Source of the DNA: Luteibacter sp. 9135
GTDB taxonomy: Bacteria > Pseudomonadota > Gammaproteobacteria > Xanthomonadales > Rhodanobacteraceae
NCBI RefSeq assembly: GCF_000745005.1
Contig: NZ_JQNB01000001.1
Location: 2,349,501 to 2,413,500 of the forward strand
Direction of reading: 5' to 3'
Length of the DNA: 64,000 bases
Part shown: positions 16,413 to 54,360 of the stretch, in pieces
Layout: the number at the start of each line of letters is the position of its first letter
Numbering within the stretch: position 1 is the stretch's first letter
The notes under the pieces: generated by a model
What the model was told of the DNA's origin: nothing
Database searches by the model: none
The model's input: only the letters and a program-made list of their open reading frames with translations
Translations under genes and position numbers: made by a program

Positions 16413-16446
16413 TCCGCTGCCTGTCCACCCATGAAGGAACGGCATC

Positions 16447-28005: not shown

Positions 28006-28899
28006 TCACTGTGCAGTGCGAATACTCAGCCGTTCTTGCGTGAATCGGACGAAGGCGAGCGCGGCGTCTGTGATTGCTCGAGCCGACATCGTTAAGGCGT
28101 GCACCGGCACACCGGGGCTTTCCGTAGCCTCGTGGACAACGGTGAGGCTACCGCTCCGGATATCCTCCTCGCACAGGCAAGCAGGCAGACGTGCGAAGCC
28201 AAGGCCGGTACGAACGGAGGCGAGTAATACGGCAATGTCACTGGTCACCATTCTTGCTTCACCTTGCTTGCTGGGTCGAAAAAGCAAGTTCATCGGCGCG
28301 CCTGGGCCGGCATACGCGAGCACATCGCGATCCGCGATGCGGTCGACGCTGGGTGACGGTCCCAGGCGCCTCACCAGTTCGGGCACCGCGACGGTAACGG
28401 TTGGCATGTGCGTGAGCACTCGTGCGACGACGTCCGTGCTATCGGGCAGGTTATCGCGCACCGATAGGACGACATCTGCCTGCTGCCGGATGAGCGGCTC
28501 GAAGTCGCCGTTGCTCGTGGTCAACCACACGCGCATCTGAGGATGATCCGCGGAGAACTCCGGCAGAATATTTGACAGCAAGGGCATCAGCAGGCTGTGC
28601 ACATGAATTCTCAACGACCGGCCCCCGACATCGGTATCTGTGGCCGCACGTTCTGCAGCCACGGCCGCCTCGCACATTGCAGAGGCATGCCTGTATACCT
28701 CCTCACCAATGGGCGTAACGGAGAAGCGCCGAGCATTCCGGTGCAAGAGCTGCACTCCAAGGCGCCGTTCCAGTGCCTTAATACGGCGGCTCAGCAGGGA
28801 TCGCGTAGTCCGCAGGTGCTCGGCGGCTACTGAAAAGCTTCCAGCCTCAATCACCTGCACCAATAGGAACAGGTCCGCCATATCGTTGGTCCGCTTCAT
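28006..28899 (-). CDS. LysR-family transcriptional regulator
   Basis: A 297-residue LysR-type regulator. The N-terminal helix-turn-helix is FLLVQVIEAGSFSVAAEHLRTTRSLLSRRIKALERRLG (quoted in part by residues 10-47), and a periplasmic-binding-like effector domain spans about 90-297. It belongs to the AphB/DsdC-like group by its RTTRSLLSRRI recognition helix. ATG 28899 gives the usual family length; an upstream in-frame start at 29175 would overlap the divergent response-regulator gene. The 166-bp gap to that TTG start is a possible shared control region. The target is unknown; neighbours are the marR operon and the two-component genes. Confidence 0.93.
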   Translation of the reverse strand: MKRTNDMADLFLLVQVIEAGSFSVAAEHLRTTRSLLSRRIKALERRLGVQLLHRNARRFSVTPIGEEVYRHASAMCEAAVAAERAATDTDVGGRSLRIHVHSLLMPLLSNILPEFSADHPQMRVWLTTSNGDFEPLIRQQADVVLSVRDNLPDSTDVVARVLTHMPTVTVAVPELVRRLGPSPSVDRIADRDVLAYAGPGAPMNLLFRPSKQGEARMVTSDIAVLLASVRTGLGFARLPACLCEEDIRSGSLTVVHEATESPGVPVHALTMSARAITDAALAFVRFTQERLSIRTAQ

Positions 28900-29065
28900 G
28901 CTTGTATGACTTGCGTTAGGTGCGCGATACCTTAAATGGATGGTTTGGCGCCGCTTTTGGCGGAGGGACCAAGGTCTTTGGTCGCGGGCAAAGTCGTTTG
29001 AGTCGTCTATACTCTTCAGCCGAAGGGGGCCTCGTGCGCCCCTCGGCAGTACACCGGGGGTTTGC

Positions 29066-29872
29066 TTGAATACCTTGAATCCGCCACACATTCTGGTCGT
29101 CGATGACCGGCCTGAGGAGATTGGCGCACTCGTTGCGGCCCTCCGTACTGAAGGGTGGCGGGTCAGTCTCGTCACGAACGCGAGCCAAGGGGTTCAACGC
29201 GCGCAAACGATGGCGCCGGACCTCATGCTGCTCGATGTGCGCATGCCACACATGGACGGATTTGCCGTCAGTCGTCTGCTTCAGGAAATGCCGCAGTTAA
29301 AAGGGACGCCGATGGTGTTTCTGACCTCGGCCAATAGTGTTGAGGAGCGGTTGGAGGGGCTCAGCCACGGCGGCGTCGATTACATCCTGAAAGACTGCCA
29401 TCCGGCCGAGCTTGTGGCACGGGTTCGCATCCATCTGAGGCTCTCGCCCCGGTCTGTCATCGCGCCGGACCATGGAACGTCCGCCGCATCGCTGACCGCC
29501 GACGAGGTGGTCCTGCAAGCCGCCATGCGACTTCTCCGGCGTCGCCTCGCGGAGCCTCTGTCGCTGGACGAGGTAGCGCGTGAAGTGGGAACGTATGACA
29601 AGCGTTTGTCAGCCATCTTCCGGGAACACCTTGGCACCACGGTATTTGCCTGGCTGCGGGAGGAGCGCATTCAGCGAAGCCGGCGCCTGCTGGTCGAGAC
29701 CACATTGAATATGCAAGACATCGCACTCGAGATAGGTTTTCGGAGCGCGTGCAACTTCACCACGGCGTTCCGGGAGCGCTGGGGCGTTACGCCCACGCGA
29801 TTCCGCCAGGTGTCTCAAGAGGAAGCCGCTGGGGACGCCCGCGCGAAGGCCGGGGTCACCGCCGCGTGCTGA
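29066..29872 (+). CDS. Response regulator with AraC-type output
   Basis: A 268-residue two-component regulator. The receiver (about 7-125) has acidic residues Asp13/Asp14, phospho-acceptor Asp57 in LLDVRMP, Thr in FLTSANS and Lys in YILKDCHPAEL. An AraC/XylS-type DNA-binding domain (about 160-258) follows, with SLDEVAREVGTYDKRLSAIF and QDIALEIGFRSACNFTTAF. I chose TTG 29066 because ACCGGGGG precedes it and the receiver starts at once; no ATG fits. Its last seven bases overlap the GTG of the kinase gene, so the two are co-expressed partners. The expected target is the adhesin operon that follows. Confidence 0.88.
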   Translation: MNTLNPPHILVVDDRPEEIGALVAALRTEGWRVSLVTNASQGVQRAQTMAPDLMLLDVRMPHMDGFAVSRLLQEMPQLKGTPMVFLTSANSVEERLEGLSHGGVDYILKDCHPAELVARVRIHLRLSPRSVIAPDHGTSAASLTADEVVLQAAMRLLRRRLAEPLSLDEVAREVGTYDKRLSAIFREHLGTTVFAWLREERIQRSRRLLVETTLNMQDIALEIGFRSACNFTTAFRERWGVTPTRFRQVSQEEAAGDARAKAGVTAAC

Positions 29873-32800
29873 CCTGGTTACGGGGCGCAGCATGCGCACT
29901 TTTAGTGCTTGCGCTGGGTGCGCCGGCCGTCGCCGGCACTCCCTCGGCGCATGTGCAGCTGCCCCTGGTGGTCTACGACCAGAATACAGGCCTGTCGAGC
30001 TTGTCCGTGGTCCGGCTCCTGGAGGACCAGCATCATTTTGTTTGGGCCGGAACCGAGCAGGGCCTTTATCGTTTTGACGGCATCGGTTTCAATCCGATGC
30101 GCGAAAAGGACGGTTTCCAGACCTCCGAGGTCGTGAGCCTGGCCGAGGACGACGACGGACATGTCTGGGCTGGCACCAGGGCGGGCTTACAGTCGCAAGA
30201 CGACAGCGGGACGTTCTCCTGGGTGCGGCCGGATGGCCGGACCATGCTCGTGGATCGAGGGCAGACTTTGGCGCCGGACGGGCAGGACGGCATGTTGGTG
30301 GTCACCGGGCACCACCTCGTCCGCCTGAAACGGCAGGCGGCCGATCGATGGACGGCGAGCCCGTGGCCGGAAGAGACCGCCGGCAAAGAACCACCCTTTC
30401 AGGTCGCCGCCGTCTATCGCCATGGTGGCCAGATCTGGTTCGGGTGCGATGAAGCCGTGTGCCGGTCGAGTAACGGCGTCCTGACCCGATTTACCGCAGC
30501 GCAAGGCGTCCCCGCCGATAAATGGGTAGGTTTTTTGGTCGCTCGTGACGGCACGGTCTGGGCGCGCGGGTTGCGCAGCGTCGTTGCGCTCGCTGCCGAC
30601 GGGTCGGCGTTCGTCGCGCACGACATCCCGGGCGGGCACGGCGAGGTGGCGGCGACCAGTATTGATCTGGCACAAGATGGCGAGGGGCGCATTGTCACGC
30701 GCTCGGACGCAGGCATTGCGCGCTGGGCCGGCGGCCGATGGGACCTTCTGGACACGCACAACGGACTGCCGGGCGTTGGGATTTCCGCTCTGATCGCCGA
30801 CCACGACGGCGCGCTGTGGGCGGGAACCTACGGCCGAGGGGTGCTTTATTGGAGCAGCGCTGGCGCCGTCGAAAACTGGACCTCCAATCAGGGGCTCAGT
30901 GATAGCCTCATTTGGTCCATCACCCGAGCAGGTCCTGACTCGATTTGGGTGGCGGGCGAAAGCGGCGGAGAAGTCATTGTTCCGTCCGAAGGGCGTGCCC
31001 ACCGATGGCCTGTGAGCGTGCCTCCTCCTGTCCAGGCGCATGCTGTGCTCACGGGTCCGGGTGGATCCATCTGGTATTTCCTGTTCGATGGTCGGGTGGT
31101 CCGGTATGAGCCGAAAGACCATCGCAGTGTGCAAGTCGCGCAACTGCCCTACCTCATTCGCGGAGCACATCGGGACGGGTCCGGGCGCTTTTGGATTTAC
31201 ACGATGGGCGGGCTTTACGAGCTTGACCCGGTCTCCGGGTCGGCTGTGCACGTGGCTCCGAGCTTGATTCCTTCCACGATGTGTTCCGACCTGGCGGAAG
31301 ACGCCGCCGGGCGACTATGGCTCGCCTGCAACTCTGGCTTGTATCGCCACAACGAGAGTGGATGGGCACGTGTTCGCGTCCTTCCGGGTGAGTCTCCGGG
31401 AGGCTATGAAAACGTCGCAGTAACCCCCGACGGACACCTCTGGCTCAGTTCGTTGCAACCAGGCCTTGTCATGGGGCTCGCTGGGGATGGCGAAAGCCTC
31501 ACCATGGAATCGGTCAACGACCCGCTATTGGCCGCGACGCGCCTTTATTTTCTGCGTTCGGACAACCAAGGCCGGGTTTGGGCGGGCGGCGGCAAGGGCG
31601 TCGATGTCCTTGCGGATGGAATATGGACGCGTCTATCCAGCCGCGACGGCTTGTTGTGGGACGAGACCAACCATGGCGCTTTTTTTGCGGATGCCGAGGG
31701 GTCGGTCTGGATCGGAACCCCCGTCGGATTGACCCACGTGCTCAAGCCCGCGGACCTGCTGGCGCCTAGAACGATGACGCCGCAGCTTTTTCCGGCGCGC
31801 TACGGGGACCGTCCCGTGGCATCGGACGCTCTGCCGTACGAACGCGGCGCACCTTTGACGATCGCGTTTGGTGTCTCGGGCAACAGTGCCGGGCATCCCG
31901 TGCACTTTCGCTATCGTCTCAAGCCACTGGACCGCGACTGGGTCGATACAAGTCAGCGGGAGGTCCGCTACGCCTCGCTTCCCTGGGGCCACTACCAGTT
32001 CGAAGTCCAGGTCGTGGACGAAAACCGGCGAACAGTGTCGGCCATTGCCTCGCTCGAGGCGACCATCCAGGCACCCTGGTGGATGACCCCCGGCGCCTTC
32101 ATTGCCCTCGCCTTGGCCATCGTGGGCCTAGCGGTGGGAGCGTGGCGCTGGCGGACCCAAGTTCTCGTTGCACATGCCCGCCGCTTGGAGGGGATCGTCG
32201 TGGAACGCACCAAGGAGCTTCGCGCGCTTCTGCACGCCCGGCGCCGTTTGCTCGCGCACATTGGGCACGATCTGCGTTCGCCGCTCTCAGCCATCGTGAA
32301 TGTGGCACGGCAGTGGCGCTGGACTGGACCGGATGTCGAACACCCCCGGACGATTGAGCGTCACGCGCGAATGCTCATGGAACTCATCGACGAGGTCGTG
32401 GAATTCTCGCGGGGCGAACTGACGGACGTGCTGCTGGAGCCGGCACCTGGTTACCTTTACCGCTTCCTCCACGAGGCCACGGAAGAGGGCGCACTCCTTG
32501 CCCAGTCCAACAACAACCGGCTTAACGTATCCATTGGCACAGACCTTCCGGCCGTGGTCGAGCTGGACTTTCGGCGCCTGCGTCAGGTGCTTTCAAATCT
32601 CCTGGGCAACGCCGCCAAGTACACCCGGAATGGCGAAATCGTCTTTACGGTCGAGGCTCGGATCTCCGCTCTTGGTCGTTCGAGCCGGCTGCGCTTCGCG
32701 GTCGAAGACACGGGCATCGGTTTGGGAGGCATGGGCGCAGAGACACTTCTCGAACCGTTCGTCCGGGGCACCAACATCAGTGATGCACCCGGAAGCGGAC

Positions 32801-33408
32801 TGGGCCTTGCCATCGTGGCGCAACTCTTGAGTCGCATGGGGTCTCGGCTAGAGGCGGGAGACAGTTCACGGGGAACGGGAAGCCGTTTCTCGTTCGAGAT
32901 CGAAGTTCCTTTGGCGGACGAGTACGATGTCGAGCCGGACTTGGCTATGGGCCAGGACCCTGTCGCGGTGGAGGGTCACGGCAGAGCGGTGATCGTGGCC
33001 GAGCCCGATGCAGCCCGCCGCGCCGTTTTGTGCGACTTGCTGGACGGCTATGGATTCCAGTCCATGCCCGTGGATTCGGCGAGAGGCCTCGACGGCCTTG
33101 AAGCCACGCGGCCGGCCCTCATCATTGCCGAGCATCGGTGGCCGGGGGGAGGAGAGGGGACGGTGATCCCACGCCTAAGCGAGCGCCTGCCTGGCGTCCC
33201 TGTCCTGATATTTACTGCTGTTCCGCCGACTCCCGCCGACGCATCACGCTCACCAACAGCAGTGATGCTGCTGAAGCCGTCCGACGCAGCGGAGGTCATG
33301 TCCTGCGTGGCACGGCTGATCGACCCATCCGACGGCCATTCACATCCGGAGCCTTTCGCCCCTGCGCGCCCGACGTCCCCTCCAGCAAAGAACGTCCGAC
33401 CCGTTTAA
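29866..33408 (+). CDS. Beta-propeller hybrid sensor kinase with Glu-substituted receiver
   Basis: A 1180-residue sensor. A signal peptide (about 1-23) leads to a periplasmic two-component-regulator propeller (about 30-650, with repeated VWAGTxxGL-type blades), a Y_Y_Y domain (about 660-735) ending in VDENRR, one membrane helix (about 739-761), a HisKA helix with His801 in IGHDLRSPL, a HATPase domain with NLLGNAAKYTRNG, EDTGIGL and GSGLGLA, and a C-terminal receiver-like domain (about 1038-1175). In that domain the phospho-Asp position is Glu1089 (LIIAEHRWPGG) and the acidic pair is degraded (VAEPDAAR), though Lys1137 remains. The GTG start overlaps the regulator gene. Such HTCS-like sensors often read glycans. 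Confidence 0.92.
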   Translation: MLTWLRGAACALLVLALGAPAVAGTPSAHVQLPLVVYDQNTGLSSLSVVRLLEDQHHFVWAGTEQGLYRFDGIGFNPMREKDGFQTSEVVSLAEDDDGHVWAGTRAGLQSQDDSGTFSWVRPDGRTMLVDRGQTLAPDGQDGMLVVTGHHLVRLKRQAADRWTASPWPEETAGKEPPFQVAAVYRHGGQIWFGCDEAVCRSSNGVLTRFTAAQGVPADKWVGFLVARDGTVWARGLRSVVALAADGSAFVAHDIPGGHGEVAATSIDLAQDGEGRIVTRSDAGIARWAGGRWDLLDTHNGLPGVGISALIADHDGALWAGTYGRGVLYWSSAGAVENWTSNQGLSDSLIWSITRAGPDSIWVAGESGGEVIVPSEGRAHRWPVSVPPPVQAHAVLTGPGGSIWYFLFDGRVVRYEPKDHRSVQVAQLPYLIRGAHRDGSGRFWIYTMGGLYELDPVSGSAVHVAPSLIPSTMCSDLAEDAAGRLWLACNSGLYRHNESGWARVRVLPGESPGGYENVAVTPDGHLWLSSLQPGLVMGLAGDGESLTMESVNDPLLAATRLYFLRSDNQGRVWAGGGKGVDVLADGIWTRLSSRDGLLWDETNHGAFFADAEGSVWIGTPVGLTHVLKPADLLAPRTMTPQLFPARYGDRPVASDALPYERGAPLTIAFGVSGNSAGHPVHFRYRLKPLDRDWVDTSQREVRYASLPWGHYQFEVQVVDENRRTVSAIASLEATIQAPWWMTPGAFIALALAIVGLAVGAWRWRTQVLVAHARRLEGIVVERTKELRALLHARRRLLAHIGHDLRSPLSAIVNVARQWRWTGPDVEHPRTIERHARMLMELIDEVVEFSRGELTDVLLEPAPGYLYRFLHEATEEGALLAQSNNNRLNVSIGTDLPAVVELDFRRLRQVLSNLLGNAAKYTRNGEIVFTVEARISALGRSSRLRFAVEDTGIGLGGMGAETLLEPFVRGTNISDAPGSGLGLAIVAQLLSRMGSRLEAGDSSRGTGSRFSFEIEVPLADEYDVEPDLAMGQDPVAVEGHGRAVIVAEPDAARRAVLCDLLDGYGFQSMPVDSARGLDGLEATRPALIIAEHRWPGGGEGTVIPRLSERLPGVPVLIFTAVPPTPADASRSPTAVMLLKPSDAAEVMSCVARLIDPSDGHSHPEPFAPARPTSPPAKNVRPV

Positions 33409-33469
33409 GCGCTGGGGCTGCTTACTTTTCGTTGAATCCCGTTAGTCGCTCTTTTGAATGGGCGGAACG

Positions 33470-33488
33470 TGTCACGCCGGGCGTGACA
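33470..33488. promoter_or_regulatory. Perfect palindrome upstream of the adhesin gene
   Basis: TGTCACGCC, one centre base, GGCGTGACA: nine-base perfect arms. It lies 62 bp after the kinase stop and 212 bp before the adhesin start, in the only gap of the module, so it is a candidate operator for the adhesin operon. Confidence 0.5.
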
Positions 33489-33700
33489 TAAGTTCCCGTC
33501 TGGCGGCCTTACGACGCCGCGCCCGGGTTTCTAGAATCGGCCCGCTGCCGCGACGCCGTTCGCATTTTTTGCGACTGCCGACGCGACCACTTGCAAGCGA
33601 GCGCGACGCTGTCCTGCCGACGCACTGTGACGGCCAGGCTTGCGTCGCGATTTTCTCGCGCTGCGCGCAACCGATCGCATCAAATCAGGGCCCCGCAACA

Positions 33701-36700
33701 ATGAATCGTATTTATCGCCTGTGCTGGAACGCCGCCACCTCTCAGTGGGTCGCGGCCAGCGAACTTGCCCGCAGCCGCCGCCCAGGCGCTCGGGTCACCG
33801 CTTCCGCAAGCGCCCCACGCGCAGCATCCATCGCGTTAGGGGTCGCCCTGGCGCTGGGCAGCGCAGGAGCTGCGCGCGCGGGTCAGACAGGCGGTCAGGT
33901 GGTGTCGGGCAGCGGTGCGATCAACCAGCACGGCACCACGACGACCATCAATCAGGCGAGCCAACACCTCTCGCTCAACTGGCAGACCTTCGACATCGGC
34001 GCGAACGAGACGGTCAATTTCGTCCAGCCAGGTCGTGACGCCATCGCGGTCAACCGCATCCTTGGTAACAGCGCCTCGGAGATCTATGGGCATCTCAATG
34101 CCAACGGCCAGGTCTGGCTCATCAATCCCAAGGGTGTGCTGTTCGGCGAGGGTTCGCAGGTCAACGTCGGTGGACTCGTCGCATCGACACTCGATACCGC
34201 CGACAGTTCGCTCGACGCGACCTCACGCACCTTCAGCGGCAATGGTAAGGGCAGCATCGTCAACAAGGGCTCGATCCGCGCGGCCAACGGCGGCTATGTG
34301 GCCTTGCTGGGCAACACGGTATCGAACCAAGGCACCATCAGCGCGCAGCTGGGCACAGTGGCGATGGGGGGCGGCAGTGCCATAACGCTCACCTTCGAAG
34401 GCAGTCAGCTGCTCCATCTCCAGGTTGACCGCAGCACGCTCGACAATCTGGTGGAGAACCGTCAGCTGGTTCAAGCGGATGGCGGCCGAATTTTCATGAC
34501 CGCCGGCGCGGCCGATTCGCTCTTGGCCAGCACGGTGAACAATACTGGTGTTGTTCGCGCGCAGACGGTGCAAAACCACAACGGCGAAATCGTCTTGCTC
34601 GGCGGCATGACGGCCGGCCATGTGAATGTTGAGGGCACGCTGGATGCGAGCGCGCCCGATGGCGGCAATGGCGGCGCGATCGAGACATCGGGCGCGTTCG
34701 CACACATCGGCAGCGCAGCGATCACCGCCGGCGCACCCTACGGCAAAGCGGGCACCTGGCTGGTCGACCCCTATGACTTGACCATCGATGCGACCGCAGC
34801 CAACGCCATCTCGAGCTCGCTCAACAACGGCACCAATGTCACCGAATCGACGTCGGCAGGCAGTGCCTCGGGCGCGGGCGTGCAGAACCCGAACGGCGTG
34901 GGTGACATCAATGTCAACGCAGCCATCAACTGGACGAACCCAAACAGTACACTGACCCTGACGGCGTATCGCGCCATCAATGTCAATGCTCCCATTTCCG
35001 GTGCTGGCCGCGTGGCGCTCACGGCCCAGGGCGCCGCAGGCAACAATGGCAACATCAACCTCGCCGCCGGCGGCACGGTGAGCGGCGGAGCAGGGGTGAC
35101 CCTCACCGCAGCCAACGCCTTCATCAACAACGCCGGTGGCAATGCGCTCAGCTCGGCATCGGGCAAATGGCTGGTGTATTCCGCGAATCGCGCGGCCGAC
35201 GTGACCGGCGGCCTGACGCCGCAGTTCATTCAATACAACGCCGCAGCGGGCGCGACGCCGCTGGGCACGGGCAGTGGCTTCCTCTACAAACAGACCGCGG
35301 TCGCGGCCATCACGGGCCTCAGCGGCACGGTGGAAAAGACCTACGACGGCACGGCGACGGCCAGTCTTGACGGGACCAACGTCAATGCGACGCTGGCAAA
35401 CGGCGACCGCATCGCCACGGCGACGGGCACCTATGGCAGCAAGGACGCCGCATCCGGCATTCAGGTGACGGCAGCGGGCAGCAGCGCGGGGTACACCTTC
35501 ACCGACGCGAGTGGGCTCGTACCCGTGTACGGCTACACCATCACCGGCGGTGGCGCTTCGGCAAATATCGGGGTTATCGACCCGCGCCAGCTCGGCGTCT
35601 CGGTCATCAACAACCCGACGAAGACCTACAACGGGACGACCACCGCCACCCTGAGCAGCGCAAATTACCTGACCTCGGGGCTCGTGGCGGGTGAGAACAT
35701 CACCTTCAGCCAGCCCAACAGCGTGGCTTACGATTCTGCCGACGCGGGCGTGCGCACGGTCAACGTAGGCTTCCTACCGTCCAATTTCACGGCGGCGAAC
35801 GGCACGAAGCTGTCCAACTACGTATTGCCGACGACGGCGACGGGCCCCGGCACCATCAACAAGGCCAAGGTGCAGCTGTCGGGCCTCATCGGAAGCGACA
35901 AGGTCTACGACGGCACCACCACGGATGGCCTGGATAAGAGCCGTGTCTCGATTTTCGGCGTCATCGCGGGCGACGCAGCCAACGCCACGCTCGACAGCAC
36001 GAATGGCATCGGCCAATTCGCCGATGCCAACGTGGGGAACGGCAAATCCGTCAGCGCCACGGGCTTCCAGCTCGTGGGTAGCAAGGCGACCAACTACGAC
36101 CTGGTTTTGCAGTCGGACATCACCGGCTCCATCACGCCGAAGGCGCTCAGTATCAGTGGGGTATCGGCCCTCAGTAAGGTCTACGACGCGACGCGCGTGG
36201 CATCACTTGCCTACACCAACCTTGCCCTGAATGGCCTGGTCAACGGCACCGACAGCGCCAACATTTCCCTGGTCACAGCGGGCGCGAACGGAACGTTTGC
36301 CACAAAGAACGTAGGCAACGGCATCGGGGTTACCGCGTCGGGCTTTACGTTGGCGGGCACCGGCACGGGCAACTACACCCTGTCGCAGCCCACCGGCCTG
36401 TTCGCCAACATCACGCCCGCGCCCTTGCTTATATCCATCACCGGCAATCCCACCCGCACGTACAACGGAACCACGACGGCCAATATTGGCGCGGGCGACG
36501 TGACCATCACCGGCTTCCAGGGTGGCGAAACGGGCAGCGTGGTGCAGAGTGCTGGCGCCACATACGCCAGCAAGGACGCAGGCACCCGGCTGTTGACCGC
36601 ACTGCTCGAACCGTCGGACTTCAGCCTGGGCAACGGTGCGCAGCTTTCCAACTACACCTTCCCCACCTCTATTACCGGGAATGGCACGATCGCCCAGGCC

Positions 36701-39700
36701 ATTCTGACGTGGTCGCTGGTGGGGAATCCCACCAAGATTTACGACGGCAATACGAACGCGGCGCTGACGAGTGACAACTTCCAGCTCTCCGGATTCCTCA
36801 GCGGAGAGGGCGCCACGGTTACCCAGACCCATGGCACCTACGACACCGCCAATGTCGGCCAGCGGAACGTCACGGCAAACCTAGGCATCGCGGACTTTAC
36901 GGCGCTCAATGCCACCGTGCTGTCGAACTACGTGCTGCCGACGGTGATGACCGGCGTTGGCACCATCACGCCGGCCCCCTTGGCTGGCTTCATTACGGCG
37001 GGCATCAACGGCCCGACTCGCGTTTATGATGGCACCACCGTCGCGGCGCTCACGCCAGCTAACTTCATCCTTTCGGGCTTTGCGTCGGGGGAGGGTGCTT
37101 CGGTCAACCAGACCGTCGGCATCTTTGCTTCGAAGAACGTGGGCAAGCAGGCCGTGTCTGCGGCGCTGACGAGTGCCAATTTTGATGCCAATGCCGGCAC
37201 CAACCTTGGCAACTACACCCTGCCATCGATGGCGTATGGCACCGGCGAAATCCAGCAGGCGCTGTTGACCGCATCGATCGTCGGCAACCCGTCCAAGGTG
37301 TACGACGGCACGCGCTATGTGACGCTCACGCCCCAGAACTACCAGGTCCTTGGCTTTGTGGCCGGCGAAGGCGCGGATATCGTTCCAAGCTCCTCGATTT
37401 CCTTTGACACCAAGAATGTCGGCAGCAACAAGACGATCACGGCGAACATGGCTGTGTCCTCTTACCTGCCGAACAGCCAGACCTTGCTTTCGAACTACAT
37501 CCTGCCCACGGTCGCCACCGGCCCCGGTACCATCACGGCAGCACCCCTCTATATCGTCGGCGTATCCGCACAGAGTCGTGATTACAACGCAACGACCCTG
37601 GCGACACTCAACAGTGGGGGCGCTTCCCTGGTCGGGCTCGTTGGCGCCGACTCGAACGACACCGGGAAAGTGGCCCTCACGGCCGGCACGACCGGCCTCT
37701 TTGCGGACGCCAACGCAGGCGTGGGCAAAGCCGTCACGGCGAACGGTTTCTCCATCTCGGGCAGCGAAGCGGGTAATTACACGCTCATGCCGCTGGCCGG
37801 CCTGACAGCGACCATCAGTCCATTCACGCTGAGCATCAATGGCGTGTCGGCCATCGACAAGATTTACGATGGCAATACGGGCATTGCGCTCAATACCGGC
37901 ACCGCGTCGCTGGGCGGCATTTTTAGCGCCGACAACGGAAACGTGACCCTCGATGCGTCGGGTGCTGCGGGCAACGTGAGGTCGGCCAATGCCGCCAATA
38001 ACCTCGATGTCACAACCTCTGGCTTTGGCCTGGCAGGCAGTGCTGCGGGCAACTATCGCGTCAACCAGGTCAGCGGTCTCACTGCGAACATCTCAAAGCG
38101 CGCCGTTACCGCGTCGATCACAGGCGATCCGACCAAGCCATACGACGGTTCAAACTCAGTGACGCTGACCGCAGGGGACTACACGCTGTCAGGTTTCGTC
38201 TCCGGCCAGGGCGCGTCCATCCCGCAGTCGTCGACCGCGAAGTACAACAACGTCAACGCCGGCAGCAACCGCGGCTTGACCTCGACGCTCTCGGTGTCGG
38301 ACTTCGTGGCGCTCGCTGGAACCAACCTCGCCAACTATGACCTCCCCGTCGGCGCGACGGGTGCACTCGGTACGATCACGCCGTTCGTCATCAATTTGAT
38401 GGGCCAGCGCATCTACGATGCTACGACCAGCGCCGATGCTGGCCTGTTTACAAATGGTGGGACGATCGCTGGCGTGAACGGCGAACGTGTTGCTCTGACG
38501 GGCAGTGGCGTTCTTTCAACCAAGAACGTGGGCAACCAGCGGAGTTTTGCGAACTTCGGCACGTTGGCCCTGGGTGACAACACCGGCACCGCGGCCAATT
38601 ACACGCTTGCGGGCGGCATCGATTGGGTCACCATCACCCCGGCAACCCTGACTGTGGCCGGCACGGTCGCCGCCGACAAGGCCTATGACCGTTCCACCGC
38701 CGCCCAGCTCTCGGGCTCCACGCTTGTCGGTCGGTTGGGTTCGGACGATGTGACGTTGGCGAATTTCGCCACGGGCACCTTCGTCAACAAGAATGCAGGC
38801 GTCAACAAAGCGGTCAGCACGTCGATGACCGTGGACGGCGGCGACAGCAGTAACTACATCCTTGTGCAGCCGGCAGGGCTGACAGCGACGATCACGCCGC
38901 TCACGATCACACCGACCGCCACGGCGGATAGCCGCCAGTACGACGGGACCACCAATGCCACGGCGACGGTGTCGTCCTCCGGCGTCCTGGCAGGCGACAC
39001 CGTCACCTTTGGCAAGTCCACCATGCCGCAGTTCGACGGAAAGGATGTCGCCAACGGCCGTACCGTCACGGTGAGCAACATCACCAAGGGTGGCGCGGAT
39101 GCGGGCAACTATGTGCTGTCGACGACCAGTGCAACGGCACTGGCGAACATCACGCCGCGCGTCCTTAACCTGAGTGGCACCCGGGTCTACGACACCTCGA
39201 CCTCGATTTTCAGTGCGGGTCTGACCCTCGGGAACCTCGTGTCGGGTGAGAGCCTTGGCCTCTCGGGCACCGGCAACACGTCAAGCAAGAATGTCGGAAG
39301 CTACAACGGCGGCAATTTCGCGCTGGGCTCGCTTACCCTCGCCAATGGCGCAGGCGGCCTCGCGGGCAACTACACGCTCAGTGGCGGTACCGATACCTAC
39401 ACCATTACCCCGGCGACCCTCCATGTCATCAACACCACGGCCGACAGCAAGGTGTATGACGCAAATACCATCGCCGCCTTGCACCATGCCACCCTCGATG
39501 GGGTACTGGGATCAGACACCGTTGACCTGACCCATGCCGATGCCGGCACCTTCAGCGACAAGAATGTCGGCACGCACAAGGCGGTCAGCACGGCGATGGG
39601 CATCGCGGGGACTGATGCGGGCAACTACACGCTCGTGCAGCCGGCTGATGTCGTCGCGGATATCACCGCTAAACTCATTCATGTCGACGCCAATGGCGTC

Positions 39701-42700
39701 AGCAAAGTCTACGACGGCACCACGGCTTCGGGCGCGACCCTGTCGAGCCAGGACTTGGCGGGGACTGACCAAGTCACCTTCAATGCCACGAGCAACCTGT
39801 TCGACACCAAGGATGTAGGCACCGGCAAGGTTGTGAGCGTTAATGGAATTACCGCCAGCGGCACCGACGCGGGCAATTACACGCTGGCGAACACCAACGC
39901 AACCACGATGGCGAACATCACGCCGTTCATCATCAATCTCAGTGGCGCGCGCGTCTATGACGGCACGGCGACGGCCGGTGCAAGCCTCTTTGGCGCGAAC
40001 GGCGTGGTCACGGGCGTTCATGGGGAAACGCTGGTCCTTTCCGGTTCGGGCAAGAGCGCATCGAAGAACGTGGCCACCTACCAGCGGGCGAGCGATGGCA
40101 CGGGCAATTTCGACCTCGACACGCTTGTCCTCAATGGCACGGGTGGTTCGAGCGCGGGCAACTACGCGCTGCAGGGCGGCACCGACAGCTTTACGATCAC
40201 CCCGCTGGCGGTAACGGTCAATGCGACGGGCGGCAACAAGGTCTATGACGCAACGACCGCCGCCACCGCGACCCTGGCGGCCAGCGGCGTGATTTCGGGG
40301 GATGCGGTGAACTTTGCCCTGGGTGGCGCCATCTTTGGTGACAAGAATGTCGCCAATGGCAAGGCCATCTCGGTCACCGGTATCACGGCCACTGGTGCGG
40401 ATGCCGGCAACTACACCTTCAATACGTCCGCCCAGACCACCGGCAGCATCACGCCGCTTGCCATCAGCGGCAGCATCGTCGCCGACGACCGCGTTTACGA
40501 CCGCACGACCGGAGCGGCGACCCACGGCAGCCTGTCGGGCGTGCTCGGCGGCGATGTGGTCGATTACACCTCGACCACCGGCAGCTTCCAGGACAAACAT
40601 GTCGGCAATGGTAAGACCGTGAATGTCTCCGGTGTCGTGGGTGGAACTGATGCCGGCAACTACGTCGTCACGAGCAATGCCACGACGATCGCGAACATCA
40701 CACCGGCGACCATCGTGGTGAGCACCAGCGCGGGTGACAAGATGTATGACGGCGATGCGTCGGCGACGACCGCCTTGTCGCAGACCGGTCTCCTCAGTGG
40801 CGACGACGTGACCTTCAGCGGTGCCTCGTCGCTGTTTTCAGATGCGAATGCGGCCAACGGCAAGACGGTCACGGTCAGCGGCATCACCGCTGCGGGCGCT
40901 GACGCGGGTAACTATGTTTACAACACGGTCGCCGCGACGCTCGCCAATATTACGCCTTACATCATTAACCTGCACGGCGAACGCGAATACGATGGCTCAA
41001 CGGTCGGGACAGCCGGGGTATTTGGCAACCAAGGCGTAATCGCCGGTATCAACGGTGACACGCTGGATCTCAGTGGCGCCGGGTCGGTCGGCGACAAGCA
41101 GGTGGGCGTCGACAAGACACTCGTTTCGACGGGCACGTTGGTGCTCACAGGCAACGGGACCGCGCTGAGCAGCAACTACACCTTGGTCGGCGGCGCGCAC
41201 GACCTGACCATCACGCCTAAGCAGATCGTGGTCGATGCCACTGGGTCCAACAAGGTCTACGACGGTGGGTCGCTTGCTTTTGCGGGTCTTGGTTCGGCCG
41301 GCGTCGTCAGCGGAGACCAAATCACCTTCACGGGCGGTGCGGCCAACTACAGCGACAAGAATGTCGCCAATGGCAAGACCATCACGGTCAGCGGAATCAC
41401 TGCCGCTGGTGCGGATGCCGGCAACTACGCGTTCAATACCACGGCCCTGACTACCGGCAATATCACGCCGCTGGCCATTGGCGGCAGCATCGTCGCGGTC
41501 AACAAGACCTATGACGGGACGACTGCGGCGCAGACCAGTGGAACCGTCGACGGCGTGCTGGCGGGTGACAATCTGGGTATCGAGACGAGCGGTAGCTTCG
41601 TCGACAAGAACGTTGGCAGCGGCAAGGCTGTGGGCGTGGCCGGTGTTCTCACCGGAGCCGACGCAGGCAATTACACGCTCACGACGAACTCCACCACCCT
41701 GGCCGATGTCTACAAGGTCATATTGAACCTCGACGGCACCCGTGTGTATGACGGTGGCACGGTCGGCTCCGCCGGGATGTTCGGTAGTGCCGGGGTCATT
41801 GCGGGCGTGGCCGGTGAAAGCCTGATCCTGAGCGGGCAGGGCGTTCTCGGTAGCAAGAACGTCGCGGCCGACCGGCCACTGGCGGGTCTCGGGTCGCTCG
41901 CCCTCAACGATGACGGTGCCGGTCTTGCCAGCAACTACACGCTGGTCGGTGGCAACCATGTCGCCACGGTGACGCCGCTGGGGATCAATGCTGGTATTTC
42001 CGCCGACGATAAGGTTTACGACGGTAATACCGGTGCCTCCACGCACGGCGTACTGGACGGCGTGCTGGGTGGCGACCAGGTGAATCTTGCAACCACCGGC
42101 AGTTTTGTGGACAGGAATGCCGCCAATGGGAAGACGGTAGTCGTCGGAGGGACGCTATCCGGCGGAGACTCGGCCAACTACACGCTTACCTTCAACCCGA
42201 CCACGACGGCAAGTATTACGAAGCGCCCCGTCGTTGTGGGCGCCCAGGGGACGGACAAGTTCTTCGATGGCAACACGGTCGACAAGGTGACCCTGTCGAG
42301 CAGCGGACTTATTGACGGCGACGTGGTGAGCTTCGGTGCCACGAGTGCGCTGTTTGCGGACCCATCGGTAGGCCACGGCAAACCCGTAACCGTCGATGGC
42401 ATCTTTGCCACCGGCGCAGACGCGGGAAACTACGCGTTCAACGTGACGGCGGAGACCTCGGCCAACATCGACCAGAACACGTCGCAGGGCGCCTCTGCGA
42501 GTGCGCTGACCCAAATTGACGCCGTGCTTCAGCCGGATGCGTTGGCTACGCCCTATGGCGTCGCCTCGAATGTGACGGTTGGCGATTACACCGGCAACCA
42601 TAAGAAGACCCGCCAGCCCGTGGAGAAAAATGTGGGGCGGTCGGACTTCAATTCCGGGCTTTCGCTGCAGGTCATTGGCGGTGGGGTGCGCCTGCCTGCG

Positions 42701-42715
42701 GATGTGATGCAGTGA
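33701..42715 (+). CDS. Giant two-partner-secretion adhesin with 27 MBG/YDG repeats
   Basis: A 3004-residue TpsA exoprotein. Residues 1-25 form an extended signal peptide region (ESPR, MNRIYRLCWNAATSQWVAAS) and cleavage is expected near ARA-GQ60. A TPS/haemagglutination domain (about 62-330) has SEIYGHLNANGQVWLINPKG, and a short beta-helical part follows. From about 543 to 2923 there are 27 units, each beginning with a YDGTT-like motif (VYDGTT, TYNGTT, IYDATT and similar) and ending in ANIT, average about 88 residues, as in MBG/YDG domains of bacterial adhesins. I saw no Cys after the ESPR. The stop overlaps the tpsB start. The likely role is adhesion or aggregation at the cell surface. Confidence 0.95.
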   Translation: MNRIYRLCWNAATSQWVAASELARSRRPGARVTASASAPRAASIALGVALALGSAGAARAGQTGGQVVSGSGAINQHGTTTTINQASQHLSLNWQTFDIGANETVNFVQPGRDAIAVNRILGNSASEIYGHLNANGQVWLINPKGVLFGEGSQVNVGGLVASTLDTADSSLDATSRTFSGNGKGSIVNKGSIRAANGGYVALLGNTVSNQGTISAQLGTVAMGGGSAITLTFEGSQLLHLQVDRSTLDNLVENRQLVQADGGRIFMTAGAADSLLASTVNNTGVVRAQTVQNHNGEIVLLGGMTAGHVNVEGTLDASAPDGGNGGAIETSGAFAHIGSAAITAGAPYGKAGTWLVDPYDLTIDATAANAISSSLNNGTNVTESTSAGSASGAGVQNPNGVGDINVNAAINWTNPNSTLTLTAYRAINVNAPISGAGRVALTAQGAAGNNGNINLAAGGTVSGGAGVTLTAANAFINNAGGNALSSASGKWLVYSANRAADVTGGLTPQFIQYNAAAGATPLGTGSGFLYKQTAVAAITGLSGTVEKTYDGTATASLDGTNVNATLANGDRIATATGTYGSKDAASGIQVTAAGSSAGYTFTDASGLVPVYGYTITGGGASANIGVIDPRQLGVSVINNPTKTYNGTTTATLSSANYLTSGLVAGENITFSQPNSVAYDSADAGVRTVNVGFLPSNFTAANGTKLSNYVLPTTATGPGTINKAKVQLSGLIGSDKVYDGTTTDGLDKSRVSIFGVIAGDAANATLDSTNGIGQFADANVGNGKSVSATGFQLVGSKATNYDLVLQSDITGSITPKALSISGVSALSKVYDATRVASLAYTNLALNGLVNGTDSANISLVTAGANGTFATKNVGNGIGVTASGFTLAGTGTGNYTLSQPTGLFANITPAPLLISITGNPTRTYNGTTTANIGAGDVTITGFQGGETGSVVQSAGATYASKDAGTRLLTALLEPSDFSLGNGAQLSNYTFPTSITGNGTIAQAILTWSLVGNPTKIYDGNTNAALTSDNFQLSGFLSGEGATVTQTHGTYDTANVGQRNVTANLGIADFTALNATVLSNYVLPTVMTGVGTITPAPLAGFITAGINGPTRVYDGTTVAALTPANFILSGFASGEGASVNQTVGIFASKNVGKQAVSAALTSANFDANAGTNLGNYTLPSMAYGTGEIQQALLTASIVGNPSKVYDGTRYVTLTPQNYQVLGFVAGEGADIVPSSSISFDTKNVGSNKTITANMAVSSYLPNSQTLLSNYILPTVATGPGTITAAPLYIVGVSAQSRDYNATTLATLNSGGASLVGLVGADSNDTGKVALTAGTTGLFADANAGVGKAVTANGFSISGSEAGNYTLMPLAGLTATISPFTLSINGVSAIDKIYDGNTGIALNTGTASLGGIFSADNGNVTLDASGAAGNVRSANAANNLDVTTSGFGLAGSAAGNYRVNQVSGLTANISKRAVTASITGDPTKPYDGSNSVTLTAGDYTLSGFVSGQGASIPQSSTAKYNNVNAGSNRGLTSTLSVSDFVALAGTNLANYDLPVGATGALGTITPFVINLMGQRIYDATTSADAGLFTNGGTIAGVNGERVALTGSGVLSTKNVGNQRSFANFGTLALGDNTGTAANYTLAGGIDWVTITPATLTVAGTVAADKAYDRSTAAQLSGSTLVGRLGSDDVTLANFATGTFVNKNAGVNKAVSTSMTVDGGDSSNYILVQPAGLTATITPLTITPTATADSRQYDGTTNATATVSSSGVLAGDTVTFGKSTMPQFDGKDVANGRTVTVSNITKGGADAGNYVLSTTSATALANITPRVLNLSGTRVYDTSTSIFSAGLTLGNLVSGESLGLSGTGNTSSKNVGSYNGGNFALGSLTLANGAGGLAGNYTLSGGTDTYTITPATLHVINTTADSKVYDANTIAALHHATLDGVLGSDTVDLTHADAGTFSDKNVGTHKAVSTAMGIAGTDAGNYTLVQPADVVADITAKLIHVDANGVSKVYDGTTASGATLSSQDLAGTDQVTFNATSNLFDTKDVGTGKVVSVNGITASGTDAGNYTLANTNATTMANITPFIINLSGARVYDGTATAGASLFGANGVVTGVHGETLVLSGSGKSASKNVATYQRASDGTGNFDLDTLVLNGTGGSSAGNYALQGGTDSFTITPLAVTVNATGGNKVYDATTAATATLAASGVISGDAVNFALGGAIFGDKNVANGKAISVTGITATGADAGNYTFNTSAQTTGSITPLAISGSIVADDRVYDRTTGAATHGSLSGVLGGDVVDYTSTTGSFQDKHVGNGKTVNVSGVVGGTDAGNYVVTSNATTIANITPATIVVSTSAGDKMYDGDASATTALSQTGLLSGDDVTFSGASSLFSDANAANGKTVTVSGITAAGADAGNYVYNTVAATLANITPYIINLHGEREYDGSTVGTAGVFGNQGVIAGINGDTLDLSGAGSVGDKQVGVDKTLVSTGTLVLTGNGTALSSNYTLVGGAHDLTITPKQIVVDATGSNKVYDGGSLAFAGLGSAGVVSGDQITFTGGAANYSDKNVANGKTITVSGITAAGADAGNYAFNTTALTTGNITPLAIGGSIVAVNKTYDGTTAAQTSGTVDGVLAGDNLGIETSGSFVDKNVGSGKAVGVAGVLTGADAGNYTLTTNSTTLADVYKVILNLDGTRVYDGGTVGSAGMFGSAGVIAGVAGESLILSGQGVLGSKNVAADRPLAGLGSLALNDDGAGLASNYTLVGGNHVATVTPLGINAGISADDKVYDGNTGASTHGVLDGVLGGDQVNLATTGSFVDRNAANGKTVVVGGTLSGGDSANYTLTFNPTTTASITKRPVVVGAQGTDKFFDGNTVDKVTLSSSGLIDGDVVSFGATSALFADPSVGHGKPVTVDGIFATGADAGNYAFNVTAETSANIDQNTSQGASASALTQIDAVLQPDALATPYGVASNVTVGDYTGNHKKTRQPVEKNVGRSDFNSGLSLQVIGGGVRLPADVMQ
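35331..42470 (+). repeat. Array of 27 MBG/YDG-domain repeats
   Basis: By hand count 27 units. Units 1-11 are mostly 90-95 residues, and five of them open after a GNP, GDP or NGP turn. Units 12-27 are shorter (80-95). Within these, a class opening after a NLxG turn then RVYD or REYD recurs as units 12, 15, 18, 22 and 25, at nucleotides near 38405, 39175, 39946, 40977 and 41738. The spacing is about 770 bp, except one gap of about 1030 bp that contains one extra unit, so the array grew partly by copying three-unit blocks. Confidence 0.85.
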
Positions 42716-44427
42716 CCCACTCTCCTCGAATTCGAAACGGCTTACCGATGACCATGGTTCAATTTCCTAAGCGTGCTGTGAACGTTCTGGGTGCCTGCAT
42801 CTTGCTGGCTATCGCCCCAGGTGCGGCCGCGCAGGTGCGGACGCCACAAGCGGGCGATTTGCTCCGCCAAGTGCCAGCGACGCCTTCTCTTCAGCGCTCG
42901 GACGACACCGGCCTGACCGTCGCGCCGGAAGTCCCCGCCGCACGGGGCGACAGCGCACCGTTCCACGTCGTCCGTATCGAGATCACGGGCAACACGCTGG
43001 TGCCTCCCGAGGAGCTGCGTGCCCTGGTCGGTCCGAGCGAGAACAGCGACCTCACGCTCGGACAGCTCAATGTCCTCGCTGCCAAGATCACGGCAGTCTA
43101 CCGCGCAAAGGGTTACCCGCTGACAGTCGCATATGTGCCCGCGCAAACCTTGACCAGCGGCACGGTGCACATTGCCGTTCAGGAGGCGCGGCTGGGCAAG
43201 GTCACGCTGGAAAACCACAGCACAACCCACGACGGGCCGTTGCTGGCCACCCTGGCTCCACTTAAGGAAGGCATGCCGGTCTCGGCCCATGGGTTTGATC
43301 GCAGCCTACTTCTGCTCGGCGACATCGCGGGTGTGACGGAGTCGTCCGCGCTGCGCCCCGGTGCGGAACCGGGCACGTCCGACCTTGACGTGCGCACGGA
43401 CGATCGCCCGCGTTACACCGGTGTCCTGGCTCTGGACGACTACGGCAATCGCTATACCGGTCGCGCGCGCCTGACCGGCACCTTCAATGTCAACGGGCTA
43501 TTCCATCAGGGTGATGTGCTCGACGCGACCGCACTCACTGCGGGCTCTAACATGAACTATGGCCGCCTGGGCTACCGCTATTTGGTGAATGGCGAAGGCA
43601 CCGTGGTGGGCGCGGCAGTCTCATCACTCGACTACAAGCTCAAGGGCGACTTGCGCGTGCTCGATGCGCACGGCACCGCACAAGTGGCCAGCGTTTTCGT
43701 CAGCCATCCGTTGATTCGCTCGACCGATGGCAATCTTTATGGTCAGCTTGGCTACGACAGGCGTCATCTCAACGATTCGATCGACATCGTAGGCGTCCGG
43801 ACACTTCGTCACACGTATGGGTGGACAGCGACACTCGCTGGCGATCAGCGCGACGCCCATGGCGTGACCAATTTCAGTCTGGCCGCTACCTATGGTCTGC
43901 TCGGGTTCAACGACGCGTTCGCCGAGTTTGTCGATGCCATCAGCGCGCAGACCAAGGGGCATTACCTCAAATACGCCCTGTCCGTCGCCCGTCTGCAGCA
44001 GCTGTCGGACAACAATGCGTTGTACGTCGGGTTTCAGGGGCAGTGGGCGAACAAGAATGTCGACACGGCCGAGCAGTTCTACCTGGGCGGGGCGAACAAT
44101 GTGCGCGGCTACGATACCGGTGTCCTGGCAGGCAGCCAGGGGCAAATGGTGAACCTCGAGTTTCGTCGGACGCTCCGGGTCGGCATGCCCGGAAGCCTGA
44201 CCGCGCTGGCATTTGCCGACGCCGGGCGTGTGAGCCTGTATAAAGACCGGTTCGCACCAGGCACCAATAGCGCCCACATGCAGAATGTCGGCCTGGGCAT
44301 GCGTTGGCAGAGCGAGGACCAATGGACCGTCAGTGCGGATGTGGCCCATCCCGTTGGCGCGCGCCCGGCCATGCTTGGCGATACGCACGGTGTCCGCGCG
44401 TGGGTGCAGGTACAGAAGGGCTTCTGA
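42712..44427 (+). CDS. TpsB transporter for the adjacent adhesin
   Basis: A 571-residue FhaC/ShlB-type pore. A signal peptide precedes VRTPQAGD; two POTRA domains (about 80-230) begin with VVRIEITGNTLVPPEELRAL and include VHIAVQEARLGKVTLEN; the barrel follows with the conserved loop-6 motif VRGYD in FYLGGANNVRGYDTG, FADAGRV, and a terminal aromatic strand WVQVQKGF. The GTG at 42712 overlaps the adhesin stop (GTGA), supporting translational coupling; ATGs at 42748 and 42754 would shorten the N-terminus and are also possible. It is the dedicated exporter of the 3004-residue adhesin. Confidence 0.94.
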   Translation: MTHSPRIRNGLPMTMVQFPKRAVNVLGACILLAIAPGAAAQVRTPQAGDLLRQVPATPSLQRSDDTGLTVAPEVPAARGDSAPFHVVRIEITGNTLVPPEELRALVGPSENSDLTLGQLNVLAAKITAVYRAKGYPLTVAYVPAQTLTSGTVHIAVQEARLGKVTLENHSTTHDGPLLATLAPLKEGMPVSAHGFDRSLLLLGDIAGVTESSALRPGAEPGTSDLDVRTDDRPRYTGVLALDDYGNRYTGRARLTGTFNVNGLFHQGDVLDATALTAGSNMNYGRLGYRYLVNGEGTVVGAAVSSLDYKLKGDLRVLDAHGTAQVASVFVSHPLIRSTDGNLYGQLGYDRRHLNDSIDIVGVRTLRHTYGWTATLAGDQRDAHGVTNFSLAATYGLLGFNDAFAEFVDAISAQTKGHYLKYALSVARLQQLSDNNALYVGFQGQWANKNVDTAEQFYLGGANNVRGYDTGVLAGSQGQMVNLEFRRTLRVGMPGSLTALAFADAGRVSLYKDRFAPGTNSAHMQNVGLGMRWQSEDQWTVSADVAHPVGARPAMLGDTHGVRAWVQVQKGF

Positions 44428-48035: not shown

Positions 48036-48403
48036 GTTTCGTCTCCGGTCTTCGATGGTCGAAAGAGGCTAGCTCAATCGAGGGCGTGTGGGATTTCCGA
48101 CTTCCCCCGCCTTGAGTAGACTCAATCCCAGAGCGAGGATGGAAATGGTGGAGTGCCTTAGTTTTCGTCTCTAAGGCAAGCACAGTTCTACAGATAGTAA
48201 AAGCTCATGGTCGCACGGCGGCATTGAGGCATATTCTTCTAGCCGCGGGGGCGGCGATCCTGGCGGGAAGATACTAGGCATGTCTTGTGGATCGTGCCGC
48301 GCTTATGTGGATGACGTGGCGTTACAGGTTGTGGCTGGCATCCCCGAGCTTCTGGAATAGGCTTCGTATCTTCTGTGAGGCTGCAAGCATCGTAGATTGG
48401 GCC
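48036..48403. other. Gap without a recognised gene
   Basis: I see no supported ORF, terminator or repeat in these 368 bp. The sequence is less GC-rich than the enzyme genes that follow. Confidence 0.5.
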
Positions 48404-49603: not shown

Positions 49604-49620
49604 GGGTATCCTCGGGGCGA

Positions 49621-51867: not shown

Positions 51868-51895
51868 CGGTGCACTTTCCTGTTCAACCGTCCGA

Positions 51896-54082: not shown

Positions 54083-54207
54083 TGCGTCGAAACTCCTGCG
54101 TAAATCGGCCGCGCGGTGACCCGCAACGGTCAGCTCTGACGAGGCCGAAGGGCATGGGATGGAAGCTGTGGGGGAGGGGTGTTTAAAACAGTAATCAAAG
54201 CTATCGT

Positions 54208-54288: not shown

Positions 54289-54360
54289 TGGAAGAACTAT
54301 CATGCGAAAGCCCTCGCCTGATTCGTCAGAATTTGCGATCAATCCTTTCGAGGTGGACCC

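What the first reader, a model, noticed from the sequence alone, without database searches (positions are those of the whole stretch)
29066..44427. Sensor-regulator-adhesin-exporter module of four genes
A response regulator with AraC output, a propeller hybrid kinase, a 3004-residue TPS adhesin and its TpsB pore are consecutive on one strand, with overlaps at the first and last junctions and a perfect palindrome in the only gap. TPS systems are not usually paired with a propeller-type hybrid two-component system, so a dedicated surface- or glycan-sensing switch for adhesin production is a reasonable and little-described possibility.
Basis: partly seen in the sequence, partly recalled or inferred. 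Interest (0 to 1): 0.8.

Follow-up and report, generated by a model that had tools for sequence, protein, structure and literature searches.

The report
Regulatory cassette with interchangeable surface-adhesin genes
A bacterium carries a small set of sensor and regulator genes next to the genes for a giant surface protein, and in its relatives the same regulators and much the same promoter sit beside unrelated large surface proteins, which suggests a reusable on/off switch for surface adhesion.

Summary
A LysR gene (28006-28899, minus) belongs to it. The response regulator (RR) has one orthologue in 32 of 233 family genomes. In 31 of 32 it lies beside a large surface-protein gene of one of five unrelated classes: two-partner secretion 11, Bap/LapF-like type I 11, DUF11/SpaA 6, trimeric autotransporter 2, classical autotransporter 1. 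The exact four-gene order occurs in 3 genomes. Three RR loci have a 7TMR-DISM kinase in place of the propeller kinase.

Non-homologous cargos share one promoter design: TTTG box, 15 bp, palindrome GTCAYGC-N3-GCRTGAC, AANTTCC, and a -10 hexamer at a fixed distance. TTTGC-type boxes recur as a 21-bp direct repeat before the RR gene. The palindrome follows LysR rather than the RR. In the window's clade the kinase's own receiver is mostly degenerate.

Best reading: a local adhesin-control cassette (RR plus LysR) whose sensor and cargo are exchangeable. All of this is comparative sequence evidence; DNA binding, the signal and adhesion are untested.

The parts
28006..28899 (-). LysR-type regulator, divergent from the RR gene; conserved with the module
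   Evidence: Pfam HTH_1 + LysR_substrate; orthologue in 29 of 233 family genomes, 27 of them RR-positive
28956..28989 (+). 21-bp direct repeat (two TTTGG-type boxes) in the RR promoter; proposed RR autoregulation site
   Evidence: 3 mismatches here; 0-4 mismatches in 28 of 31 RR loci tested against 34 of 1860 random 320-bp segments, which include overlaps with real sites; spacing tally 21 bp x19, 12 x1, 33 x1
29008..29013 (+). TATACT, -10-like hexamer of the RR promoter
   Evidence: read from sequence; AGTATA/TATACT is the top 6-mer in 27 RR upstream regions, 17 of 27 against 0.3 expected
29066..29872 (+). Response regulator, receiver + AraC-type output, TTG start
   Evidence: Pfam; 32 of 233 genomes, one each
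29866..33408 (+). Propeller (Reg_prop/Y_Y_Y) histidine kinase, GTG start proposed
   Evidence: Pfam; full-length orthologue in 29 of 233 genomes; PDB sequence relatives 3v9f, 4a2l
32977..33327 (+). Degenerate C-terminal receiver (Glu at the phospho-Asp position, acidic pair lost)
   Evidence: alignment; no Pfam Response_reg call; weak match to a solved receiver, 7w9h, E 1.6e-5
33452..33470 (+). RR-box-like segment of the adhesin promoter (TTTTG, shifted one base from the TTTG consensus)
   Evidence: (1 mismatch to the extended pattern)
33471..33487 (+). Palindrome GTCACGCCGGGCGTGAC (perfect over 33470-33488), proposed LysR operator
33488..33498 (+). Conserved ATAAGTTCCCG flank of the palindrome
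   Evidence: A-B identity 0.78 against 0.25-0.35 in flanks
33532..33537 (+). TAGAAT, -10-like hexamer of the adhesin promoter (weak -35-like CTTACG at 33508-33513)
   Evidence: exactly 61 bases from the palindrome start in 22 of 23 loci, 62 in the other
33701..42715 (+). TpsA: 3004-aa exoprotein, ESPR signal, TPS domain, YDG repeats; putative adhesin
   Evidence: Pfam
42712..44427 (+). TpsB outer-membrane transporter (alternative start ATG 42748)
   Evidence: Pfam POTRA_2, ShlB

Best explanation
This is a local control cassette for one large surface protein. Shown by sequence comparison: an AraC-output RR, a membrane sensor kinase and usually a LysR regulator stay together, while the surface protein they adjoin is replaced between lineages by members of unrelated secretion classes and the promoter keeps one design. 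Inferred: (1) the propeller/Y_Y_Y sensor reads an extracellular, perhaps carbohydrate, cue and phosphorylates the separate RR directly, since its own receiver is degenerate; (2) phosphorylated RR binds TTTGC-type boxes, as a 21-bp direct repeat at its own promoter (autoregulation) and as a box upstream of the adhesin promoter; (3) LysR binds the palindrome that follows that box, so the two regulators act on one short promoter segment, cooperating or competing; (4) the output is TpsA made and exported by TpsB. The sign of LysR control is unknown.
For: RR orthologue in 32 of 233 genomes, one each, nothing listed between 1e-83 and 1e-45; 29 of 29 full-length kinase orthologues are in RR-positive genomes. 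Cargo beside the RR in 31 of 32: TPS 11, type I 11, DUF11 type 6, trimeric autotransporter 2, classical autotransporter 1. Extended element in 26 of 233 genomes, one hit each, reversed-pattern control 0; 25 of the 26 are RR+ LysR+. TPS and type I promoters 0.86 identical in the palindrome but 0.25-0.35 in outer flanks; -10 at a fixed distance in 22 of 23. Direct repeat before the RR in 28 of 31. RR+ LysR- genomes: 0 of 5 have the element; RR- LysR+ genomes: 2 of 2 keep the palindrome but not the TTTG box. TPS relatives elsewhere in the genus (TpsB 72-81%) lack the element.
Against: No binding, expression or adhesion data. G153 has RR and kinase but no large surface gene in 20 kb. Azotobacter vinelandii (L142) and an Alcaligenaceae MAG (L145) have the RR without an adhesin nearby. 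The direct repeat is absent or unrecognisable before the RR in G020, G106 and G177. RR-box identity between TPS layouts A and C is only 0.34, near background, and the window's copy is shifted by a base. G145 and G177 have LysR but a degenerate or divergent palindrome. The kinase lies apart from the RR in several genomes, so RR-kinase pairing there is by inference. Genome-wide search for the direct repeat at 3 mismatches is not specific.
Confidence: 0.75

Rival explanations
1. The palindrome is the RR's own operator, and LysR is a bystander that regulates something else.
For: The RR gene is as tightly linked to the cargo as LysR; the element is in 25 of 32 RR+ genomes. The part of the element 21 bp after the TTTG box overlaps the palindrome, so a second RR half-site could hide there (my reading).
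Against: G001 and G007 lack RR and kinase but keep LysR and the palindrome; five RR+ LysR- genomes lack it. The RR's own promoters carry direct repeats, not this palindrome, except that two (L045, L047) have a palindrome-like site in the LysR-RR gap.
Confidence: 0.25
2. Neutral gene order: the surface-protein locus is a hotspot that happens to lie beside an unrelated two-component system.
For: Large repeat-rich surface genes turn over fast; one RR+ genome has no such gene beside it (G153), and G001/G007 keep the cargo without the RR.
Against: Adjacency in 31 of 32 genomes in several gene orders, and a promoter element conserved between unrelated cargos while its flanks are at background. In the 5 loci around paralogous propeller proteins (L049, L050, L051, L053, L054) none of the TPS or type I queries hit (autotransporter and DUF11 queries were not in that search).
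Confidence: 0.07
3. A hybrid phosphorelay as in Bacteroides HTCS: kinase to its own receiver, then to the separate RR.
For: The sensor resembles HTCS sensors (PDB 3v9f, 4a2l); in 17 of 17 readable rows outside the window's clade the C-terminal receiver has an Asp.
Against: In the window's clade 9 of 14 readable rows have Glu and 3 have lost the position; the window is one of the Glu rows. No HPt domain was reported by Pfam in the window's kinase.
Confidence: 0.1
4. Control by Clp/CRP is the main switch and RR/LysR only modulate it.
For: TGTGA-N6-TCACA at exactly +79 from the palindrome start in 10 of 11 type I promoters and in G001 and G007.
Against: 0 of 10 TPS promoters, the window included, have that site.
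Confidence: 0.05

Closest known systems
Bordetella BvgAS and fhaB/fhaC
   Same: A two-component system controls a TPS adhesin; review passages call it the best-studied regulator of a TPS operon (PMC5422565). An inverted-repeat site upstream of the fhaB promoter is described (PMC2225982, passages). Genetic linkage of bvgAS to fhaB is recalled, not from a call.
   Different: Here the RR has an AraC output, a LysR regulator is added, and the cargo changes between secretion classes. BvgA is recalled as a LuxR-type (NarL-like) regulator.
Bacteroides hybrid two-component systems (HTCS) with propeller/Y_Y_Y sensors
   Same: Sensor architecture (Reg_prop, Y_Y_Y) and an AraC-type output.
   Different: RR is a separate protein, the receiver in the kinase is degenerate here, and the neighbours are surface proteins; HTCS are recalled as one polypeptide beside glycan-use genes.
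7TMR-DISM hybrid kinases (RetS/LadS type, recalled)
   Same: Three family RR loci and several outside the family have a DISMED2 kinase in place of the propeller kinase. DISMED2 of NicD is reported to bind carbohydrates (PMC8544897, passages).
   Different: Here it pairs with a linked AraC-type RR beside one surface-protein operon.
P. aeruginosa CdrAB, Pseudomonas LapA/LapF adhesins
   Same: Large exported adhesins of TPS and type I kinds; cdrAB is under FleQ/c-di-GMP (PMC5422565).
   Different: No evidence of a shared local regulator across both classes there that I know of (recalled).

Membership tests
Two-partner secretion (type Vb) | TpsA with TPS domain and TpsB with POTRA and FhaC-type barrel, encoded together | tested here: met
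   Pfam TPS 1.4e-36, POTRA_2, ShlB
Two-partner secretion (type Vb) | Secretion of TpsA through TpsB | not testable with these tools
   needs an experiment
Hybrid two-component system (HTCS) | Periplasmic propeller + Y_Y_Y sensor with kinase core | tested here: met
Hybrid two-component system (HTCS) | Kinase, phosphorylatable receiver and AraC output in one chain | tested here: not met
   RR is a separate gene; in-chain receiver has Glu for Asp
AraC-output response regulator | Receiver with phospho-Asp and AraC-type HTH | tested here: met
   D57 invariant in 19 aligned RRs
LysR-type regulator | LysR HTH and substrate domain | tested here: met
LysR-type regulator | Binds the palindrome at the cargo promoter | tested here: inconclusive
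   co-occurrence only: 25 of 27 LysR+ against 0 of 5 LysR- among RR+ genomes; genomes are not independent
BvgAS-like adhesin control locus | Two-component system that activates the linked adhesin | not testable with these tools
   adjacency and promoter conservation only

The most novel reading that the evidence does not exclude
An 'adhesin slot': one regulator pair (AraC-type RR plus LysR) with a fixed promoter design into which evolution plugs unrelated large surface proteins using type I, Va, Vb and Vc export, and onto which alternative sensors (propeller or 7TMR-DISM) are plugged. RR relatives beside surface proteins in Pseudomonas, Undibacterium and Prosthecomicrobium suggest it is wider than one family.
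Probability: 0.6. Interest if true: 0.75.

Novelty: new variant of a known kind. Interest (0 to 1): 0.62.

Why it matters
Local control of an adhesin by a linked two-component system is known. A regulator cassette that stays while its cargo is exchanged between unrelated secretion classes, with a promoter element preserved across the exchange, would let one regulator be used to ask what signal makes bacteria stick, and to find unrecognised surface adhesins by their promoter instead of by homology. It also gives a testable two-regulator promoter with boxes that can be assigned to RR or LysR.

Tried and rejected
Rejected: the four-gene unit as the conserved thing (3 genomes only). Rejected: MBG repeats (Pfam gives YDG). 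Rejected: a genome-wide regulon from the direct repeat; at 3 mismatches 161 of 233 genomes match and the reversed-pattern control matches as often. Rejected: Clp/CRP control of the window's promoter (0 of 10 TPS promoters). Rfam gave no match at gathering score in 27000-48000. An element-like hit in G246 (3 mismatches, not an RR genome) is taken as noise. The core pattern's reversed control gave 1 hit, in G050. Alignment A1 held one row from a wrong strand and was replaced by A2; the RR tree did not use A1. The kinase row of G022 (21 aa) and the truncated G147 L108 row were not counted in the receiver comparison. G140 was not in the 31-locus direct-repeat test because its RR runs to the edge of the fetched stretch; its repeat is listed with 2 mismatches. 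L114, L115, L117, L118 and L119 were fetched and not analysed. Of the 60 loci, 8 outside the family were examined; two of these (L148, L149) are too short to judge.

Literature: no paper on this module was found in ten searches of an open-access library; 'luteibacter' + 'filamentous hemagglutinin' and 'two-component regulator propeller' + adhesin + AraC gave 0 papers. Only passages of PMC2225982, PMC5422565 and PMC8544897 were seen; the rest are search listings.

Full report
Observation. The four ORFs stand at the given coordinates with the expected domains. The palindrome is 33470-33488 and is not expected by chance in the window (0.06 with up to 3 mismatches). The kinase probably starts at GTG 29866, and the RR at TTG 29066, because a -10-like TATACT (29008-29013) lies between an upstream ATG and that start. 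The C-terminal receiver of the kinase is not called by Pfam, although a weak match to a solved receiver exists (7w9h). A LysR gene is divergent at 28006-28899.

The host. The window lies in a 4.49-Mb one-contig genome.

Conservation. Over 233 family genomes the kinase has 29 full-length orthologues; 13 further genomes match the propeller part only. The RR has 32 orthologues, one per genome, with nothing listed between 1e-83 and the 1e-45 cut-off. LysR has 29, of which 27 are in RR genomes and two (G001, G007) are not. All 29 kinase genomes have the RR. The three RR genomes without the propeller kinase (G005, G106, G177) have a kinase whose relatives by tblastn are 7TMR-DISM type, confirmed by Pfam for G005 and G177.

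Cargo. Read, the 32 RR loci fall into: TPS 11 (window, G009, G020; G125, G126, G127, G133, G138, G140, G114; G222; in G138 the TpsB gene is beyond the contig stretch held); Bap/LapF-like type I adhesin plus TolC-like OEP 11 (G002, G003, G004, G008, G010, G014, G016, G017, G021, G022, G029); DUF11-type large protein plus a putative outer-membrane protein 6 (G142, G143, G144, G145, G147, G177); YadA-type trimeric autotransporter 2 (G031, G106); classical autotransporter 1 (G005); none in the 20-kb stretch 1 (G153). Domain calls were run on one type I locus (L042; NF045619 BapA/Bap/LapF, T1SS_rpt_143, VCBS, DUF4347, cadherin, OEP), three DUF11 loci (L058, L113, L108), both YadA loci and the autotransporter; the others are assigned by tblastn. 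The type I ABC exporter was not sought. The proteins run from 1251 to about 3830 residues where complete.

Layout. A: LysR< RR> kinase> TpsA> TpsB (3 genomes; in G020 LysR is on the same strand). B: the same with the type I cargo (11). C: kinase> LysR< RR> TpsA> TpsB. D: kinase> LysR< RR> DUF11 protein>. In the three LysR-less loci G005, G147 and G222 the cargo is divergent from the RR and the RR direct repeat lies between them.

Cargo exchange. In the RR tree the three TPS loci of layout A form a clade (99/98) inside a clade (99/94) that otherwise holds the type I loci and G153, so a replacement happened there; its direction is not decided. In the genus the type I adhesin N terminus was found only at this locus (10 of 23 genomes, G001 and G007 at their LysR) and in none of the three TPS genomes; the diverged copies of G016 and G017 were missed by that query. 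Close TpsB relatives (72-81%) occur away from the module in G005, G006, G012, G018 and G019 and as second copies in G000 and G009.

Promoter element. TTTG-N15-GTCRYGC-NNN-GCRTGAC-RYAANTTCC with up to 3 mismatches hits 26 of 233 genomes once each; the reversed control hits none. Twenty-five are RR+ LysR+ genomes; the other, G246, is probably noise. Genomes with free-standing TPS relatives have no hit, and G000 and G009 have one, at the module. The region around the second TPS copy of G000 has no match better than 7 mismatches to the core. Between layouts A and B identity is 0.86 in the palindrome, 0.78 just after it, 0.45 in the box before it, and 0.25-0.35 in the other segments; between A and C the box is only 0.34. 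The -10-like hexamer begins 61 bases from the palindrome start in 22 of 23 loci.

Which protein binds what. The RR's own promoters hold two TTTGC-type boxes 21 bp apart: spacing tally 21 bp 19 times, 12 once, 33 once; best pair with 0-4 mismatches in 28 of 31 loci, misses G020, G106, G177, against 34 of 1860 random segments, some of which overlap real sites. The repeat is also present (1 and 2 mismatches) before the RR of two Pseudomonas strains. The palindrome instead follows LysR: 25 of 27 RR+ LysR+ genomes against 0 of 5 RR+ LysR- genomes (Fisher 1e-4, which treats genomes as independent); G001 and G007, LysR+ without RR, keep the palindrome (0 and 1 mismatch to the core) but not the TTTG box. 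Those two genomes may be one or two events (LysR tree). G145 keeps flanks with a degraded palindrome and G177 has a 4-mismatch site. Type I promoters also carry a CRP/Clp-like site at +79 in 10 of 11 loci and in G001 and G007; 0 of 10 TPS promoters do.

Kinase receiver. Of 14 readable rows in the window's clade 9 have Glu at the phospho-Asp position, 2 have Asp and 3 have lost it; all 17 readable rows outside the clade have Asp. So the hybrid state is probably ancestral and is being lost where RR and kinase genes adjoin.

Wider reach. RR relatives outside the family: Undibacterium (L150) with a DISM-like kinase divergent from a TPS pair; Pseudomonas L140 and L141 with a DISM-like kinase and a divergent large protein (Pfam DUF11 for L140); Prosthecomicrobium (L147) near an autotransporter. 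Azotobacter vinelandii (L142) and an Alcaligenaceae MAG (L145) show no adhesin nearby.

Mechanism. Shown: linkage, cargo exchange, promoter conservation. Inferred: phosphotransfer from kinase to RR, RR at the TTTGC boxes, LysR at the palindrome, control of the adhesin. A carbohydrate cue is a guess from sensor folds: propeller/Y_Y_Y resembles Bacteroides HTCS sensors, and DISMED2 of NicD is reported to bind carbohydrates (PMC8544897 passages). The best PDB sequence match of LysR is 3hhg, which I recall as Neisseria CrgA, a contact-regulated repressor; that name comes from no call.

Novelty. TPS control by two-component systems is known (PMC5422565 passages). No paper on this cassette turned up in ten searches of an open-access library; that library lacks most subscription papers. 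I class it as a new variant of a known kind.

Noticed in passing
window 58632-63849 (minus): T4SS coupling protein followed by two proteins with the X-Tfes XVIPCD domain (glucosaminidase type and lipase type): looks like an X-type T4SS antibacterial effector region.
   Followed up: no
G000:C1:1235302, 3769330, 1258359 (L031, L033, L034): The window's genome has three more TPS domains over the Pfam cut-off, in open frames of 3317, 4348 and 6252 aa; the first has an ESPR start like the window's TpsA and a TpsB 77% identical.
   Followed up: partly
G001 (L106) and G007 (L116): LysR and type I adhesin kept with the palindrome while RR and kinase are missing; a natural test case for LysR-only control.
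   Followed up: partly
type I loci, +79 from palindrome start: Perfect TGTGA-N6-TCACA site just after the -10 in 10 of 11 loci: possible Clp (c-di-GMP/cAMP-type) input.
   Followed up: partly
cargo promoters, near the kinase stop in layouts A and B: Inverted GCAAAG copies upstream of the TTTG box; CTTTGC/GCAAAG occurs in 25 of 27 cargo regions against 8.9 expected. Might allow looping by the RR.
   Followed up: no
L112 (G106) 3833-10969: YadA-type ORF whose start carries a transposase DUF772 domain: an insertion element has probably fused to or disrupted the 5' part.
   Followed up: no
L045 (G016) 6333-12428 and 12340-17151: The type I adhesin is read as two overlapping ORFs, possibly a frameshift or an assembly error in this MAG.
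   Followed up: no
window 47460-54289 (minus): DUF1349, PI-PLC-like, GH92 and TonB-dependent receptor genes in a row: looks like a glycan-use cluster beside the module.
   Followed up: no
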